Source of the DNA: Nitrospirillum viridazoti CBAmc
GTDB lineage: Bacteria; Pseudomonadota; Alphaproteobacteria; Azospirillales; Azospirillaceae
Direction of reading: 5' to 3'
Assembly (NCBI RefSeq): GCF_000730165.1
Contig: NZ_CP022110.1
Location: 937,501-1,001,500 of the forward strand
DNA: 64,000 nucleotides
A program made the position numbers and the translations under genes. The notes below the pieces were generated by a model. That model searched no databases and had not been told where the DNA came from. It saw only the letters and a list, made by a program, of their open reading frames with translations. Positions within the stretch are counted from its first letter, which is position 1. Every line of letters starts with the position of its first letter. Below are positions 22,324 to 63,762 of the stretch, one piece after another.

Positions 22324-22475
22324 TCCTATGGGCTCCTGCAAAGGGGCGGTAACCGGTGGCACCATACGGGTATCGCCGGCGCCCTCCAAGGCGGGAGTTG
22401 GTTAAGGCCACTTGGCCGCAAGCGAAGACGGAAAACCTGGGCCGCGACCGCGGCCACGCGGCGATTGAAGGTGGA

Positions 22476-38363: not shown

Positions 38364-38484
38364 CGGTGGCACGAGATAAAGACTCGTGCCACCGTAGCCC
38401 GCGACCGCGGGTGCCGGAGTGAGCACCGTAGGAGCGGAACGAGGACAGCCAAAGGCCCGGACGGGCCTGTCGGCGCCTGAGGAA
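38364..38484 (+). repeat. Structured dispersed repeat, copy A
   Basis: This copy starts with a 12-bp perfect hairpin (arms CGGTGGCACGAG / CTCGTGCCACCG, 7-nt loop) at 38364-38394. TAG and a second hairpin GCCCGC-GACC-GCGGGT follow (38397-38412). GCCGG (38413-38417) can pair with TCGGC (38470-38474) to close a domain containing the conserved GGAGTGAGC and AACGAGGACAGCCAA segments and a third hairpin AGGCCC-GGAC-GGGCCT. The copy ends TGAGGAA, one nucleotide before the TonB receptor stop codon, and reads opposite to both neighbours. Two further copies are at 47452-47568 and 62222-62346. Confidence 0.8.
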
Positions 38485-38485
38485 C

Positions 38486-40651
38486 TCACAAATCAAGCGT
38501 GGCTGAGAAGCGCACGGTGGCCGGCATGCCCGAGTAGAGCGTGGGGCCGCCGGTGGCCCAGTACCGCTCATTGGTCACGTTGTCGGCGTTGACGCGCAGG
38601 GTCAGGCCATTGCCCTGCACCTGGGTCTTGTAGCTGGCCCCCAGGCTCAGCGTCGTGTAGGCGGGCAGGGTGGCGCGGTTCTGCGCATCCGCCGCGCGAT
38701 CGCCGGTGTAGTAGACGCCGGCGTTCAGGCCCACGCCGTCCAGGAAGTCCGGATGGTATTCCGCGAAGACGGAACCGGACCAGCGCGGCGTGTTCTCCAC
38801 CCGCCTGCCATCCTGGTAGATGCTGCCGGTGTTCTCCTGAAGGGCGTTCAGGTACTGGCCGCTGACCATGATCGACAGGTCGGGCAGCACCTCCCCCTGG
38901 ACGGAGGCTTCGACGCCCTGGTGGATGGCCTGGCCGTTCAGGACGTAGGTGTTGTGGATGTCGGTGTAGGCCAGGCCCCGGTCGATATGGAACCAGGCCA
39001 GCGACATCATGGCGCCGGCCACTTCCATGCGGCCGCCCACCTCCACCTGCTTGCTGACGATGGGGTTTAGGATGCTGCCGGCGTTGGTGGTGCCGTCCGG
39101 CGCGGTGCCGGCGCTCTCCAGCCCCTCGATATAGGTCGCGTACAGGCTGGACTTGGGCGTCAGCTTATAGACCAGGCCGGCCGTGGGGGTGACGGTCTGG
39201 ACGGCATAATTGCTGGCGGCCGAGCTGGTGTCATAGTCGACATAACGGGCGCCGGCGATCAGCAGCCAGCTTTCGCCCAGGTGCGCCATGTCCATGACAT
39301 AGCCGCCGGTGTCGATGTTCACGCTGCCGGCCAGCAGGCGGGTGGTGGTGAACTTCAGCGTGTCGTAGGCGACATCCACGGGATCGTACAGGTTCTGCTT
39401 GATCGCGGTGTAGGACTGCTGGTGCTGGTCCTCCTGCGTCTGGCGGTTGCGGCTGAAGCCGATCAGCAGCTCATGGCTGATGGGGCCGGTGTCAAGCTTG
39501 CCGGACACTTCCAGCCGCAGGTTCTGGTTGCGATATTCCTGGTCGGGCGTGTAGGTGCCGGTCACCGTGCCGGAGCCGGTGGCCAGGTTGACGCCGCCCA
39601 GGTTGGCGATGGTGCGCTGCCGGCGGGTGGAGGCGACGCCGAACTCCGCGCGGGCCGACCAGTCGTCGGTGATGGCGTAATCGGCGCGGCCCACCACGTT
39701 GGTGGCCCAGGTGTTGTAGGGTGCGTTCAGCGGGGCGAAGCGCAGGCTGGGGTCCGGGATGGACGGCAGGATGATGGTGCCGCCGTTGCCGCCTTTGGCG
39801 CCCACGGCGGTGGGCAGGGTGATGCCACCGGGCTCATCCATCTCACGGCGGTAGTATTCGGCGTCCAGCTTGAAGGTCAGGCGCTCGCTGGCGCGCCAGT
39901 CGAAGGCGCCGCTCATCAGCCAGCGGCGACCGTCCACGTCGTTGACCGGCGTGCCGATACGTGAGGCGTAGCCGTTGACGCGCGCGCCGTATTCGTTGTG
40001 GTCGCCGAACTCCCGCCCGATGTCGAAGCCGCTGCCGAAACTGCCGTTGTTGTCGCCGTTCAGGGTGAAGGAGGTGACGGGGTCGGACCCCGCCCGCTTG
40101 GTCACCACGTTGACGATGCCCGACGGCGTGCTGATGCCGTAGTAAAGGGCCGACACGCCCTTCAGCAACTCAACCCGCTGCTTGTTCTCGATGGGGATGG
40201 GGCCCAGGTTGATGATGGGCAAGGACCCGTTAAGGCGATAATTGGTGCGCGCGTTCATCAGCACGCCGCGCGAGACGAAGTTGTTGCTGGTCAGGGGGCT
40301 GGTGGATTGCTGCGTCACGCCGGGCGTGTTGCGCAGCGCGTCGTCCAGCCCCTGCGCCCCCTGCGCGTCCAGCAGGGCGCGCGGCAGGATGGCGACGGTC
40401 AAGGGCGTGTCCAGCAGCGACTGGTTCCGGAAGGCGCCGACCTGCACTACCTCCGCCTTGAAGGAGGGGGCCTGCGTGCCGCTCACGATAATGTCGTCCA
40501 GGGCCTTTTCCTGGCCGGCGTCCGTGGTGGAGGCCGTCGTGTCCACGGCGGCGTCCATCGCTTCCGTGGCCATCGCTTCCGTGGCCTGGGCCCGCAAGGG
40601 GGCCTGCATCGCCGCCAACAGGGCAAGCATCGACACGGCGCACTTTTTCAT
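38486..40651 (-). CDS. TonB-dependent siderophore receptor
   Basis: The 721-residue outer-membrane protein has a signal peptide (MLALLAAMQAPLRAQA). A TonB-box-like stretch (DDIIVSG) is followed by a plug domain (about 60-170, with LLDTPLTVAILPRALLDAQG and VELLKGVSALYYG) and a 22-strand barrel to the C-terminus, ending RFSATLDL. The FVSRGVLMN and NVVTKRAGSDP segments fit the ferric-siderophore receptor branch (FhuA/FpvA type). It should import a ferric chelate using TonB energy. A Fur-box-like site lies about 40 nt upstream of the start. No transport or siderophore genes adjoin it, so it probably uses siderophores made by others. Confidence 0.93.
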   Translation of the reverse strand: MKKCAVSMLALLAAMQAPLRAQATEAMATEAMDAAVDTTASTTDAGQEKALDDIIVSGTQAPSFKAEVVQVGAFRNQSLLDTPLTVAILPRALLDAQGAQGLDDALRNTPGVTQQSTSPLTSNNFVSRGVLMNARTNYRLNGSLPIINLGPIPIENKQRVELLKGVSALYYGISTPSGIVNVVTKRAGSDPVTSFTLNGDNNGSFGSGFDIGREFGDHNEYGARVNGYASRIGTPVNDVDGRRWLMSGAFDWRASERLTFKLDAEYYRREMDEPGGITLPTAVGAKGGNGGTIILPSIPDPSLRFAPLNAPYNTWATNVVGRADYAITDDWSARAEFGVASTRRQRTIANLGGVNLATGSGTVTGTYTPDQEYRNQNLRLEVSGKLDTGPISHELLIGFSRNRQTQEDQHQQSYTAIKQNLYDPVDVAYDTLKFTTTRLLAGSVNIDTGGYVMDMAHLGESWLLIAGARYVDYDTSSAASNYAVQTVTPTAGLVYKLTPKSSLYATYIEGLESAGTAPDGTTNAGSILNPIVSKQVEVGGRMEVAGAMMSLAWFHIDRGLAYTDIHNTYVLNGQAIHQGVEASVQGEVLPDLSIMVSGQYLNALQENTGSIYQDGRRVENTPRWSGSVFAEYHPDFLDGVGLNAGVYYTGDRAADAQNRATLPAYTTLSLGASYKTQVQGNGLTLRVNADNVTNERYWATGGPTLYSGMPATVRFSATLDL

Positions 40652-47451: not shown

Positions 47452-47568
47452 TTCCCTCATGCGCCGGGCGCCAGCATCCGCTGGCTTGGCTTCCTCGCTG
47501 CGCCCTGCGGTGCTCGCTCCGGCGCCCGCAGTCGCGGGCTACCAGCGGCATGGCTCCCATGCCGCTGG
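47452..47568 (-). repeat. Structured dispersed repeat, copy B
   Basis: Read on the minus strand, this copy opens with a 12-bp perfect hairpin (CCAGCGGCATGG / CCATGCCGCTGG) at 47542-47568. TAG and GCCCGC-GACT-GCGGGC follow (47524-47539). A GCCGG / CCGGC closing helix surrounds GGAGCGAGC, a GCAGCGAGGAAGCCAAG segment and the hairpin GCCAGC-GGAT-GCTGGC (47470-47485). It ends TGAGGGAA. It lies between the two S10 peptidase paralogues, in their direction. Confidence 0.8.
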
Positions 47569-47594: not shown

Positions 47595-49178
47595 TTACGG
47601 CGCGGCCGGCGCCGCCTTGTCGTAGAAGGCGTCCAGGTCGGCCACCATCTGCTTCAAGGCGTCGGGATTCAGGTAGACCATGTGGCCGGAGGGGTAGTAC
47701 TTGAAGGTCACGTTTCGGCGCTGGGCCGGTTCCAGCTGCATGTGGCCGATGTCGTATTCGGTGCCGAAGAACGGGGTGGCCATGTCGTACCAGCCATTCA
47801 GCGACAGCAGCTGCAGGTGCGGGTTCTGGCGCATGGCCTGCGCCAGGTCCAGGGCCACGTCCGGCATTTCCATCCGCCGGTTCTCGATCTTGTGGTGCCA
47901 GTCCCACTGGCCGATGGCGCCGTCGGCGCTGCGGCGGTAGTCCAGGTCGGTCTTGTAGCCCAGGTCACCGCTGATGTAGGCGCGCTGGCTGGAGATGAAG
48001 GCGCTGGTGACCGCGTTGGAGGAGGCGTCGTACTCCGGTCCCTCGCCGGCGGAATCGATGTCCACGCCCAGGAAGCGGCTGTCCAGGCGGCCCACCGTCT
48101 TGGCCTCGTCACGCAGCAGTTCCTTGCGGAAGCGCTGCAGGCTGACGCGCAGCTTGGCCTGCTTCAGGAAGGGGACCGGCAGGCCGGTGTAGGCCGACAA
48201 CTGCTTGGCGACAGCGTCCTCTTCCTCCGGGGTGATGTCCTGGCCCTTGGCCAGCGCCACGGTGTAGGGGCCGCGCGCGTAGTCCCGCACCTTTTGCAGG
48301 AAGGCGGCCAGGTCGGCGGGCTTGTTGGCGATGCGGTTGTGGTACCAGGCGGTGGCGGCGTAGCTGGGCAGGTAGGAGATGAAGATGTTGTCGAAGCCCG
48401 GCTGGCGGATGCCGTAGTTCAGGATGGACGACAGCAGCACGACGCCGTTCAGGTCCATGCCGTCCTGCTGCAGCCGGTTGGCCAGGGCGGACGAGCGGGT
48501 GGTGCCGTAGGACTCGCCGAACAGGAATTTGGGCGAGTTCCAACGGTTGTTGATGGTGACGTAGCGGTTGATGGCGCGGGCGAAGGCATCCACGTCCTGG
48601 TCCACGCCCCAGAAGTCCTTGTCCTTGGCGTCGCCCAGCGGGCGGGAATAGCCGGTGCCGACGGCATCGATGAAGACCAGGTCGGTCTTGTCCAGGATGC
48701 TGTCCTCATTGGCGGAATAGACATAGGGCGCCGGCGGCGTGTTGTCCGGCGCGCTGGTGCGCACGCGCACCGGCCCCAGCCCCATGTGCATCCACAGGCT
48801 GGCCGAGCCTGGGCCGCCGTTGTAGAGGAAGGTCACGGGCCGCTTGGTCGCCGGCGCGCCCTCGGCGGTGTAGGCGACATAAAACACGCTGGCCGTGGGC
48901 TTGCCGTTGTCGTCCCGGATGGTCAGGGTGCCGGCGGTCGCCTGGTAGCGGATGCTCTTGCCACGGATGGTGACGCTGTGGGCGCTGCTCTTGGCCGTTT
49001 CGGCAATGGGGGCGCGGGCGGTGGCGGCGTCAATCTGCTCCGCGATCTTGTTCGCCTTGGACCCGTCCTCGCCGCCTTTGTCCTTCTTGTCCTCGGCCCA
49101 GCCTTGGGTCGCTGCGCCGGTCATCAGCACGGCGGCCAGCGCCGCCGTTGCCCATTTCGCTCCAGCCATCTTTTTCAT
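47595..49178 (-). CDS. Secreted S10-family serine carboxypeptidase (copy 2)
   Basis: This 527-residue paralogue of the downstream gene has the same length, signal peptide, linker and motifs. The serine is Ser223 in FGESYGTTRS; the oxyanion stretch TFLYNGGPGSASLW is identical, and the His region is YYPSGHMVYL. The two copies differ mainly in the N-terminal linker and in surface regions, which suggests a fairly old tandem duplication with possible change in substrate range. It should act in the periplasm or outer surface. It is upstream of copy 1, with a structured repeat between. Confidence 0.93.
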   Translation of the reverse strand: MKKMAGAKWATAALAAVLMTGAATQGWAEDKKDKGGEDGSKANKIAEQIDAATARAPIAETAKSSAHSVTIRGKSIRYQATAGTLTIRDDNGKPTASVFYVAYTAEGAPATKRPVTFLYNGGPGSASLWMHMGLGPVRVRTSAPDNTPPAPYVYSANEDSILDKTDLVFIDAVGTGYSRPLGDAKDKDFWGVDQDVDAFARAINRYVTINNRWNSPKFLFGESYGTTRSSALANRLQQDGMDLNGVVLLSSILNYGIRQPGFDNIFISYLPSYAATAWYHNRIANKPADLAAFLQKVRDYARGPYTVALAKGQDITPEEEDAVAKQLSAYTGLPVPFLKQAKLRVSLQRFRKELLRDEAKTVGRLDSRFLGVDIDSAGEGPEYDASSNAVTSAFISSQRAYISGDLGYKTDLDYRRSADGAIGQWDWHHKIENRRMEMPDVALDLAQAMRQNPHLQLLSLNGWYDMATPFFGTEYDIGHMQLEPAQRRNVTFKYYPSGHMVYLNPDALKQMVADLDAFYDKAAPAAP

Positions 49179-57904: not shown

Positions 57905-57978
57905 TGGCTGGGGGACTTGGATTCGAACCAAGGTTGACGGAGTCAGAGTCCGTAGTCCTACCGCTAGACGATCCCCCA
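57905..57978 (-). tRNA. tRNA-Gln (CUG), copy 1
   Basis: The 74-nt gene folds into a cloverleaf: acceptor TGGGGGA / TCCCCCA, T arm CTTGG-TTCGAAC-CAAG and an anticodon loop CTCTGAC with CTG at positions 34-36. CCA is encoded. An identical copy lies 70 nt upstream. Confidence 0.97.
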
Positions 57979-58048: not shown

Positions 58049-58122
58049 TGGCTGGGGGACTTGGATTCGAACCAAGGTTGACGGAGTCAGAGTCCGTAGT
58101 CCTACCGCTAGACGATCCCCCA
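58049..58122 (-). tRNA. tRNA-Gln (CUG), copy 2
   Basis: It is identical over all 74 nt to the copy at 57905-57978, with the same CTG anticodon and encoded CCA. The two are probably processed from one transcript. Confidence 0.97.
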
Positions 58123-60685: not shown

Positions 60686-62194
<1,509 letters not shown>

Positions 62195-62221: not shown

Positions 62222-62346
62222 CAGCGGCATGAGAGACACATGCCGCTGTAGGCTGCGACCGCAGCCGCCGGAGGTTTCCGGGGAGCGAAGCGGACTGGGA
62301 ACCGAGGATAAGCCAAGGGCCGGATGGCCCGCCGGCGTTTGAGGAA
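62222..62346 (+). repeat. Structured dispersed repeat, copy C (its tail is the rsmB ribosome binding site)
   Basis: The 10-bp hairpin CAGCGGCATG / CATGCCGCTG with a 7-nt loop opens the copy (62222-62248). TAG and the hairpin GGCTGC-GACC-GCAGCC follow (62251-62266). GCCGG (62267-62271) and CCGGC (62332-62336) close a domain that includes GGGAGCGAAGCGGA, ACCGAGGATAAGCCAA and the hairpin GGGCC-GGAT-GGCCC (62317-62330). The tail TGAGGAA (62340-62346) lies 9 nt before the rsmB ATG. An extra small hairpin (CCGGA / TCCGG) sits inside this copy. Confidence 0.8.
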
Positions 62347-62355
62347 AACGTACTT

Positions 62356-63762
62356 ATGACCCCGACTGCTCGCCTGCAGGCGGCCATCGACCTTCTGACG
62401 GAAGTTCTGGCCACGCCGCGCCCCGCCGATGCCGTGGCCAGTGCCTTCTTTCGCGCCCGCCGCTATATCGGCGCCAAGGACCGTACCGACGTGGCGGAAA
62501 AGGTCTACGGCATCCTGCGGCGCTGGGCGCGCCTGCACTGGTGGCTGAACCGCGCGGGGTATGGCGGTGCCAATGCGGATGGAACGCCCCAGCCGGCGGT
62601 GGACGCGCGCGCTCTGCTGATCGCCGACGAGCTGCTGACCCGGGGCCGCAGCGCCTCTTCCGTGGCGGAGCATTTCAACGGCGGCAAGTTCGCGCCGGCA
62701 CCGCTGGAGGCGCATGAGCGCGCCCTGATCCAGGCGCTGGAGACCCACACGCTGGCTCATCCGCAGCAGCCCGACGCCGTGGTGGCGGAGGTGCCGGACT
62801 GGGCGGCGGATACCCTGCGCAACGCCCTGGGCGAGCGTTTCGTGCCGGAGATGCAGGCCATGCTGGGGGCGGCCCCCATGGATCTGCGGGTCAACCCGGT
62901 AAAGGGCACGCGGGAGCAGGCGCTGGCGGCCTTGGCCAAGGCCGGCGTGCAGGCGGAGCCGACCAAGATCTCCGCCCTGGGCATCCGGGTACGCAACCGC
63001 TTCCCTATCGCCACGCTGAAGGCCTTCCAGGACGGCCTGCTGGAAATCCAGGACGAGGGCTCGCAGCTGGTGGCCTTCGCCGCCAACCCGCAGCCGGGCC
63101 AACAGGTGGTGGACTTCTGCGCCGGCGCCGGCGGCAAGACGCTGGCCATCGCCGCCATGATGAACAACAAGGGCCGTGTCGTCGCCTGCGACGTGCTGGA
63201 CGGCCGGCTGAAGCGGGCGCAGGAGCGGTTCCGCCGGGCCGGCCTGCACAACATCGAGACGCGGCCCATCAAGTCCGCCCGCGATCCCTGGGTGAAGCGG
63301 CACAAGGGCCGCTTCGACCGCGTGGTGGTGGACGCGCCGTGCAGCGGCACCGGCACCTGGCGCCGCAACCCCGACGCCCGCTGGCGCCAGCTGGGCCCTG
63401 GCCTGTCGGAACTGCTGCCCCTGCAGGCGGAAATCCTGGACAGCGCCGCCCGCCTGGTGCGCCCCGGCGGCCGCCTGGTCTACGCCACCTGCTCCCTGCT
63501 GCCGGAGGAGAACCAGGACCAGGTGACCGGCTTCCTGGCCAGCCATCCGGACTTCACCCTGCTGCCCATCACCGAGGCTTGGCCCGAGGGCATGGGCACC
63601 CCGCCCAGCACCAACGGCATGCTGTCGCTGTCCCCGGCCCGCCATGACACCGACGGCTTCTTCGCCGCCGTCATGGTGCGCAAGGAGGCCGCCGCCGGGA
63701 CCGCCACCGCCGACGAGCCGGAAGGGGTGGAAGAGGCGGGCGAGGACGCCGCCGAGGCCTGA
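62356..63762 (+). CDS. rsmB: 16S rRNA (cytosine-C5)-methyltransferase RsmB-type
   Basis: The 468-residue protein has an N-terminal NusB-like helical domain (about 1-150) and a C-terminal NOL1/NOP2/Sun domain. The two cysteines of the m5C mechanism are present: Cys329 in DAPCSGTG and Cys379 in YATCSLL. The AdoMet loop is VVDFCAGAGGKTLAIA. The C-terminal tail is acidic (EGVEEAGEDAAEA). RsmB methylates C967 of 16S rRNA in E. coli. Translation starts just behind the structured repeat. An alternative name would be RsmB-like m5C methyltransferase, as the exact site cannot be read from sequence. Confidence 0.93.
   Translation: MTPTARLQAAIDLLTEVLATPRPADAVASAFFRARRYIGAKDRTDVAEKVYGILRRWARLHWWLNRAGYGGANADGTPQPAVDARALLIADELLTRGRSASSVAEHFNGGKFAPAPLEAHERALIQALETHTLAHPQQPDAVVAEVPDWAADTLRNALGERFVPEMQAMLGAAPMDLRVNPVKGTREQALAALAKAGVQAEPTKISALGIRVRNRFPIATLKAFQDGLLEIQDEGSQLVAFAANPQPGQQVVDFCAGAGGKTLAIAAMMNNKGRVVACDVLDGRLKRAQERFRRAGLHNIETRPIKSARDPWVKRHKGRFDRVVVDAPCSGTGTWRRNPDARWRQLGPGLSELLPLQAEILDSAARLVRPGGRLVYATCSLLPEENQDQVTGFLASHPDFTLLPITEAWPEGMGTPPSTNGMLSLSPARHDTDGFFAAVMVRKEAAAGTATADEPEGVEEAGEDAAEA

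What the first reader, a model, noticed from the sequence alone, without database searches (positions are those of the whole stretch)
38364..38484. New-looking family of structured intergenic repeats (three copies) with covarying helices
Copies at 38364-38484 (+), 47452-47568 (-) and 62222-62346 (+) share one order of parts: long hairpin P1, TAG, hairpin P2 with a GACY tetraloop, closing helix GCCGG / YCGGC, purine-rich core GGAG..GAGC and CGAGGA..AGCCAA, hairpin P3 with a GGAY tetraloop, and a TGAGGAA-like tail. The P1 arms are GGTGGCACGAG in A and CAGCGGCATG in C; P2 is GCCCGC/GCGGGY in A and B but GGCTGC/GCAGCC in C; P3 is AGGCCC/GGGCCT, GCCAGC/GCTGGC and GGGCC/GGCCC. The arms change but remain paired, so RNA or DNA structure is conserved rather than sequence. 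I know no named element that matches. The core GAGCGA..GAGG.AGCCAA faintly recalls ERIC-type repeats, which I do not claim as homology.
Basis: partly seen in the sequence, partly recalled or inferred. Interest (0 to 1): 0.85.

Follow-up and report, generated by a model that had tools for sequence, protein, structure and literature searches.

The report
Mobile folded repeats with swapping arms
The three repeats belong to a family of small jumping DNA elements, present in well over a hundred copies in this bacterium and found widely in its class, whose hairpin arms differ between copies yet nearly always stay matched.

Summary
The three copies are real; a fourth, eroded one lies at 22399-22473. 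A covariance model finds 149 copies in this Nitrospirillum genome (a floor: 150 candidates were scored) and relatives in 20 families of the class, some by one weak match. Covariation is strong; no Rfam family matches. The part described is the inner body; P1 is the left terminal hairpin, and the right one (P4) is not intact in the window copies. Copies sit mostly between genes, enriched where genes converge, depleted where they diverge. At orthologous sites (flanks about 95% identical) P3 shows 32 two-sided pair changes and 2 one-sided; in 11 of the 15 two-sided hairpins two or three pairs changed together. That suggests exchange of hairpin modules between copies, though donors were not traced. 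A G·U versus A·C test is inconclusive on RNA. No mobilising transposase was found. Nearest kind: CIR/MITE-type intergenic repeats; identity with CIR could not be tested.

The parts
38364..38394 (+). Copy A, P1: left terminal hairpin CGGTGGCACGAG / CTCGTGCCACCG; holds a GANTC site (GACTC)
   Evidence: sequence; fold
38395..38485 (+). Copy A, body: TAG, P2 (38397-38402/38407-38412, loop GACC), core, AGCC, P3 (38453-38458/38463-38468, loop GGAC), tail TGAGGAA (38478-38484); ends against the stop codon of the antisense TonB-receptor gene 38486-40651
   Evidence: R1 84.3 bits, E 1.5e-16; R2 E 2.4e-6; Pfam
47452..47541 (-). Copy B, body (P2 loop GACT, core, P3 loop GGAT, tail TGAGGGAA); downstream of a peptidase S10-like gene 47595-49178 (-)
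   Evidence: R1 108.1 bits, E 1.1e-21; sequence; Pfam
47542..47568 (-). Copy B, P1 hairpin CCAGCGGCATGG / CCATGCCGCTGG
   Evidence: sequence; fold
62222..62248 (+). Copy C, P1 hairpin CAGCGGCATG / CATGCCGCTG
   Evidence: sequence; fold
62249..62347 (+). Copy C, body, long subtype with an extra core helix GGTTTCC/GGGAACC; between the IMP dehydrogenase gene 60719-62194 and an rsmB/F-type gene 62356-63762
   Evidence: R1 63.5 bits, E 4.7e-12; fold; Pfam
22399..22473 (+). Probable fourth, eroded copy (tail CGGCGATTGAAGG) in the 86-bp gap between two predicted genes
   Evidence: R1 21.6 bits, E 0.005; R2 E 0.03; sequence and alignment; gene calls

Best explanation
A family of non-autonomous transposable elements (MITE-like) of Alphaproteobacteria. 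The complete unit is 140-165 bp: TACC terminal repeat with hairpin P1, hairpin P2 (loop GACY), a middle domain (hairpin with loop NCRT; elaborated in Nitrospirillum), AAGCCAAG, hairpin P3 (loop GGAY), TGAGGG, hairpin P4, GGTA. It inserts at TNA and duplicates those 3 bp. SHOWN: termini and TNA duplications in copies with both ends, filled and empty orthologous sites, bursts of same-score copies in two other genera, mostly intergenic placement with avoidance of divergent gaps, covarying hairpins, and two-sided replacement of arm pairs at orthologous sites. INFERRED: a DDE-type transposase supplied in trans moved the elements; resident copies exchange hairpin modules by ectopic gene conversion, which keeps arms matched while sequences turn over; copies persist at gene 3' ends because insertion there is least harmful. 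Whether the folded form also serves the host, as a 3'-end RNA structure or a DNA cruciform, is open.
For: Termini: in G010, TNA duplications agree in L206, two copies in L210, L211, L212 and L222. Among 225 distinct copies screened by motif, 17 pairings of a T.A|TACC end with a GGTA|T.A end were found; one (a second pairing in L206) is spurious; 12 of the other 16 have identical TNA, where about 4 would be expected by chance. Filled/empty sites: L075 against L032 (TGA on both sides; its right end reads CGTA) and L047 (TTA on both sides) against L141/L013. Bursts: some 45 rows with the same 52-bit score in G010 and 7 rows at 67.2 bits in G034. Distribution, own genome counted in each: 33 of 385 class genomes with R2, 27 of 385 with R1, 18 of 40 relatives. 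Covariation. Arm exchange: 27 orthologous filled pairs from about 16 sites (my grouping), flanks 94.9% identical; P3 128 pair positions unchanged, 32 changed on both sides, 2 on one; P2 134/17/5; long-for-short subtype swap at L120/L289. The alternative arms seen are mostly among the commonest P3 types of these genomes. Context: 42 convergent, 66 tandem, 5 divergent against 20/64/29 expected.
Against: No transposase bounded by these ends was found: Y1_Tnp absent from the own genome, DUF4096 from G010; none of five PF01609 loci in G010 is bounded by such ends, those seen nearby belonging to element copies. Of 16 real end pairings, 4 have unequal duplications, as has L208 (TAA/TTA). Few copies have both ends: in 54 of 100 copies facing an opposing gene, its stop codon lies 0-14 bp after the tail, leaving no room for P4; how these shorter copies arose or spread is unexplained. 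Donor copies for arm exchange were not traced, and in 4 of 15 two-sided P3 differences only one pair changed, which stepwise compensation would also give. P2 was selected for pairing there, so its one-sided count is biased low, and the 27 pairs are not independent. The motif screen behind the copy collections catches only part of the copies.
Confidence: 0.77

Rival explanations
1. The body is a structured RNA element kept for its RNA fold: a 3'-end structure that protects or separates transcripts of neighbouring, often convergent, genes. Arms covary by compensatory mutation under selection on RNA pairing.
For: Conserved tetraloops (GACY, GGAY, NCRT) and the conserved AGCCAAG and TGAGGG next to freely varying arms; strong covariation; placement at gene ends; a lean to G·U over A·C, 25 to 15 after dropping mis-registered hairpins and 31 to 18 before; tandem copies in the sense of their neighbours 60, antisense 40, summed over four groups; some single-pair two-sided changes at orthologous sites.
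Against: The G·U/A·C difference is not significant (p 0.15) and G·U is rare (6 of 963 cells in A4). In 11 of 15 two-sided P3 differences two or three pairs changed together. Full copies carry transposon ends. TTTT follows P3 in only 9 of 257 copies, and AAAA (a T-run on the other strand) precedes P2 in 18, so they are not ordinary intrinsic terminators.
Confidence: 0.3
2. Arms stay matched through a mutational process inside each hairpin: template switching during replication copies one arm onto the other, without selection and without donor copies.
For: Nearly perfect Watson-Crick arms with few G·U pairs (where copies were selected for pairing); many G-C to C-G flips; one-pair two-sided changes at two orthologous sites.
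Against: Most two-sided differences at orthologous sites involve two or three pairs and arms that are common elsewhere in the genus, together with linked changes outside the hairpin (for example L011 against L170), which a hairpin-internal copy event would not bring.
Confidence: 0.13
3. These are CIR elements (Caulobacter CcrM-associated intergenic repeats) or a branch of them, so the family is already named.
For: Same class; CIRs are described as intergenic, about 110 bp, with 5'-TA termini and a GANTC site in a hairpin loop (passages of PMC2229807 and PMC10969869). GANTC occurs in P1 of 13 of 57 copies from other Nitrospirillum genomes (5.4 per kb against 0.96 per kb in the loci) and 14 times within 45 nt after the body in 21 G010 copies.
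Against: Only 5 of 64 own, 1 of 37 Niveispirillum, 1 of 15 other and 0 of 21 G010 P1 stretches hold GANTC. CIRs are described as two arms and a linker, and their target duplication is listed as unknown. No CIR sequence could be compared.
Confidence: 0.25
4. REP/RAYT-type or HEARO/omega-RNA-type elements, moved by a Y1 transposase or tied to IscB.
For: A GTAG-like motif before a hairpin (the likeness is recalled); folded body.
Against: Terminal repeats with 3-bp duplications, which single-strand (Y1) transposition is not known to make (recalled); no Y1_Tnp in the own genome although the control search rang in 5 of 14 genomes; no Rfam match at threshold on the element. RRXRR gave nothing, but its control was silent too.
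Confidence: 0.03

Closest known systems
CIR elements of Caulobacter and Brucella (Chen and Shapiro 2003; known here only through passages of PMC2229807 and PMC10969869)
   Same: Alphaproteobacterial, intergenic, 100-200 bp, hairpin-rich, TA at the termini, GANTC in a terminal hairpin of some copies
   Different: Three body hairpins plus two terminal ones; TNA duplications shown here; GANTC in a minority of P1 hairpins; sequences could not be compared
Bacterial MITEs such as Correia/NEMIS, RUP and ERIC (passages of PMC2229807)
   Same: Short, terminal inverted repeats, target duplications, many copies, mostly intergenic
   Different: G+C-rich, whereas most described there are A+T-rich; TNA duplication; body with tetraloop hairpins whose arms are exchanged
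IS1031 group of the IS5 family
   Same: 3-bp TNA target duplication (stated for that group in a passage of PMC12016507)
   Different: The ends quoted there for one member (GAACC...) differ from TACC; no such transposase tied to the element
REP/BIME and REPIN elements (search listing with start of abstract only: PMC3116915, PMC8266576; otherwise recalled)
   Same: Palindromic, high copy number; single copies, inverted pairs and tandem arrays also seen here
   Different: Terminal repeats with target duplication; no Y1 transposase in the own genome; longer multi-hairpin body
Br-REP1/Br-REP2 of Bradyrhizobium (PMC5082802, passages and section 15 read)
   Same: Alphaproteobacterial repeats in 3'-UTRs, one with flanking palindromes
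   Different: The quoted consensus sequences look unlike this element (by eye)

Membership tests
MITE (non-autonomous DNA transposon) | Short, too short for a transposase gene | tested here: met
   140-165 bp between identical duplications in 12 copies
MITE (non-autonomous DNA transposon) | Terminal inverted repeats | tested here: met
   TACC...GGTA in copies with both ends; in G010 the two ends share TACCNNCGAGCCYTGATNNTGAC by eye
MITE (non-autonomous DNA transposon) | Target-site duplication | tested here: met
   12 of 16 real end pairings have identical TNA, 4 do not; L047, L075
MITE (non-autonomous DNA transposon) | Filled and empty orthologous sites | tested here: met
   L075 against L032; L047 against L141/L013
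MITE (non-autonomous DNA transposon) | Ends shared with an autonomous element | tested here: inconclusive
   No transposase bounded by such ends in the few families tried
IS1031-group derivative | 3-bp TNA duplication | tested here: met
   rule from PMC12016507
IS1031-group derivative | Ends and transposase of that group | tested here: inconclusive
   DUF4096: 0 matches in G010, 4 in the own genome; the three own loci examined show no such bounding ends
CIR | Intergenic | tested here: met
   18 of 244 copies overlap a predicted gene by 45 bp or more (home-made gene caller, over-long starts; not examined one by one)
CIR | GANTC in the loop of one arm | tested here: inconclusive
   P1: 13 of 57 other Nitrospirillum, 5 of 64 own, 1 of 37 Niveispirillum, 1 of 15 other, 0 of 21 G010
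CIR | Sequence likeness to CIR1-CIR4 | not testable with these tools
   Paper not held
REP/RAYT | Y1-type transposase in the genome | tested here: not met
   0 matches in the own genome, control rings in 5 of 14 genomes
HEARO/omega RNA | Match to a covariance model or an IscB gene | tested here: inconclusive
   No Rfam match at threshold on the element; RRXRR search silent in the controls as well
Intrinsic terminator | T-run after the last stem | tested here: not met
   TTTT downstream of P3 in 9 of 257 copies

The most novel reading that the evidence does not exclude
A class-wide mobile element whose function is carried by a fold, not a sequence: fixed tetraloops and linkers are read by a host factor, as RNA or as extruded DNA, at gene 3' ends, while the arms are interchangeable and are swapped between copies as matched modules. 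It would be a structured noncoding element that spreads as a transposon and evolves by hairpin exchange.
Probability: 0.15. Interest if true: 0.82.

Novelty: new variant of a known kind. Interest (0 to 1): 0.6.

Why it matters
It is a large intergenic repeat family, 149 or more copies in this genome and traces in 20 families of the class, that no Rfam model matched at its threshold. It warns that covariation in repeat families may arise by exchange of whole hairpins between copies, so covariation statistics alone need not prove a conserved RNA. With several sequenced Nitrospirillum species, the rate and mechanism of hairpin exchange, and any effect on convergent transcription, can be tested directly.

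Tried and rejected
Rfam at gathering and at lax thresholds: only weak, implausible matches on the element (CcsR1 antisense to A, 23 bits against a threshold of 65; eukaryotic miRNAs). REP/RAYT and IscB readings. Partner transposase; L227 and L361 hold an interrupted and a further copy. Stop-codon targeting looked striking by eye (mmsB of Azospirillum argentinense ends exactly where an element begins), but 6 of 19 resolved copies have a stop codon as duplication against 5.7 expected from the TNA sites in the gap, so targeting is rejected. RNA-strand test inconclusive; 25 of 245 distinct hairpins were dropped as mis-registered. The motif screen used to collect copies in scripts finds 1 of the 3 window copies (it misses A and C), and in 20 dinucleotide shuffles of the window 17 times nothing, twice one and once two hits; it under-counts and is no detector by itself, so copy numbers come from the covariance models. 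Window copies B and C against plasmids: nothing. G010 and Niveispirillum copies against plasmids: Azospirillum, Niveispirillum, Tistrella; the G010 copy against phages: nothing; part of it with the left end against plasmids: no clear hit. Phylum search: 12 of 398, own included, all of the same class, but the output does not show how many sampled genomes lie outside the class. Literature: searches showed no description of this family; the library holds only open-licence papers.

The gene caller was home-made (high third-position G+C, first start codon); background gaps were limited to 30-1200 bp. From to the working set lacked the window record by an oversight, so leave it out; copy B is still in as L001.

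Full report
OBSERVATION. Copies A and B share P2 GCCCGC/GCGGGY, C has GGCTGC/GCAGCC; P3 differs in all three. Each folds better than its dinucleotide shuffles (z -3.7, -6.4, -5.4). Model R1, built from 31 copies, scores the three far above anything else in the window; R1 contains them, but R2, built from 45 copies of other genera, finds them too. A fourth, weak match at 22399-22473 lies in an 86-bp gap and looks eroded.

SIZE OF THE FAMILY. blastn with copy B gives 46 places at E<=10 in the own genome, 41 at 2e-11 or better. R1 gives 149 at E<=0.01; only the 150 best candidates were scored, so this is a floor. The genome has 7.38 Mb in 4 contigs. Counting the own genome, R1 matches 18 of 40 relatives and 27 of 385 class genomes, R2 33 of 385. 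Hits carry 20 family labels, some by one weak match (for example G403, E 7.6e-5). Same-family genomes of 6.5-7.9 Mb without any match (G008, G016, G021) act as a negative control.

ANATOMY. In most other genera seen the body is plainer: P2 (loop GACY), a middle hairpin (loop NCRT), AAGCCAAG, P3 (loop GGAY), CCCGGCG, TGAGGG. In Nitrospirillum the middle hairpin is replaced by GGAGCGAG..GCGAGGA, or, in the long subtype of copy C and L025, by a longer helix. Columns 3 and 21 of A1 alternate between A/G and G-C and extend P2. Covariation is far above shuffled and slid controls in both alignments.

IT IS A TRANSPOSON. In genome G010 some 45 places have exactly the same score; the copies read in 20 stretches there share ends: TACC at one end, GGTA at the other, with TNA outside, apart from cut or mutated ones. 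Duplications agree in L206, twice in L210, in L211, L212 and L222, and disagree in L208. Over 225 distinct copies screened by motif, 17 end pairings were found; one is spurious, 12 of 16 have identical TNA and 4 do not. The 12 are 140-165 bp long. Comparing orthologous loci, L075 carries an element between TGA and TGA where L032 has none (its right end reads CGTA), and L047 one between TTA and TTA where own L141/L013 have none. Four other gap pairs shown are partial, eroded or unrelated and are not counted. The window copies have P1 but no intact P4 and no TACC/GGTA ends, so I read them as truncated or decayed.

WHERE IT SITS. With a home-made gene caller, 18 of 244 motif-found copies overlap a predicted gene by 45 bp or more. 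In own plus other Nitrospirillum loci, 42 resolved copies lie between convergent, 66 between tandem and 5 between divergent genes; 372 element-free gaps of 30-1200 bp predict 20, 64 and 29 (p about 4e-10; orthologues not removed). Where an opposing gene follows, its stop codon is 0-14 bp from the tail in 54 of 100 copies (G010 left out). Three annotated plasmid records were usable: in two an element abuts a stop codon, in the third it lies between two tandem genes; two more records had no annotation there. Insertion at stop codons is no more frequent than the TNA sites in the gap predict (6 of 19 against 5.7).

HOW THE ARMS CHANGE. At 27 orthologous pairs from about 16 sites (flanks 94.9% identical, range 90.5-98.3) the P3 arms show 128 unchanged pair positions, 32 changed on both sides and 2 on one side; P2 shows 134, 17 and 5, with P2 selected for pairing. 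From that listing, 10 of 27 P3 hairpins are identical, 2 differ on one side only and 15 differ two-sidedly: six by three pairs, five by two, four by one; these 15 come from 9 of the 16 sites. At 5% divergence the 324 P3 arm letters would carry about 16 changes, nearly all one-sided; 66 are seen, 64 of them in two-sided pairs. The alternative arms are mostly common types elsewhere in these genomes, neighbouring positions change along with some of them, and one site has exchanged a long for a short subtype (L120/L289). I take this as exchange of modules between copies, most simply ectopic gene conversion; donors were not traced, and the one-pair cases would also fit stepwise compensation. Evolution of REP by gene conversion was raised before (a review title in the reference list of PMC2267715).

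RNA OR DNA. Among 220 distinct hairpins kept of 245, non-Watson-Crick pairs are 25 G·U, 15 A·C and 26 others (p 0.15 for G·U against A·C); an earlier count without that filter gave 31 and 18. This neither shows nor excludes selection on RNA. T-runs are rare.

KNOWN FAMILIES. No Rfam family reaches its threshold on the element in the window or in eight loci (one gathering hit on L245 437-708 lies away from the element). CIR repeats are the nearest named kind, seen only through passages of two reviews. TNA duplication is the rule of the IS1031 group, but no partner transposase was found. Br-REP1/2 look different in sequence.

VERDICT. A real, large branch of bacterial MITE-type repeats, not described in the papers my searches reached, with an unusual mode of arm turnover; the mobiliser and any host function are open.

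Noticed in passing
L004 1632-2086: Local tandem array of four long-subtype copies with period 118-119 bp; spacer CATAAGAGGGAAGCGTAGCGAC
   Followed up: partly
G000:C1:574305/574446 and C1:2815948/2816090: Inverted pairs of copies, BIME-like
   Followed up: no
window 22399-22473: Probable eroded fourth copy in an intergenic gap
   Followed up: partly
L225 about 1495-1536: Solitary palindrome of about 42 bp made of the right terminal hairpin alone
   Followed up: no
L227 430-960: A copy apparently interrupted by foreign DNA
   Followed up: no
P1 of copies from other Nitrospirillum genomes; 3' side of G010 copies: Excess of GANTC, the CcrM methylation site, inside or near the terminal hairpins
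   Followed up: partly
window 57908-57978 and 58052-58122, minus strand: Two tRNA genes with the same score side by side
   Followed up: no
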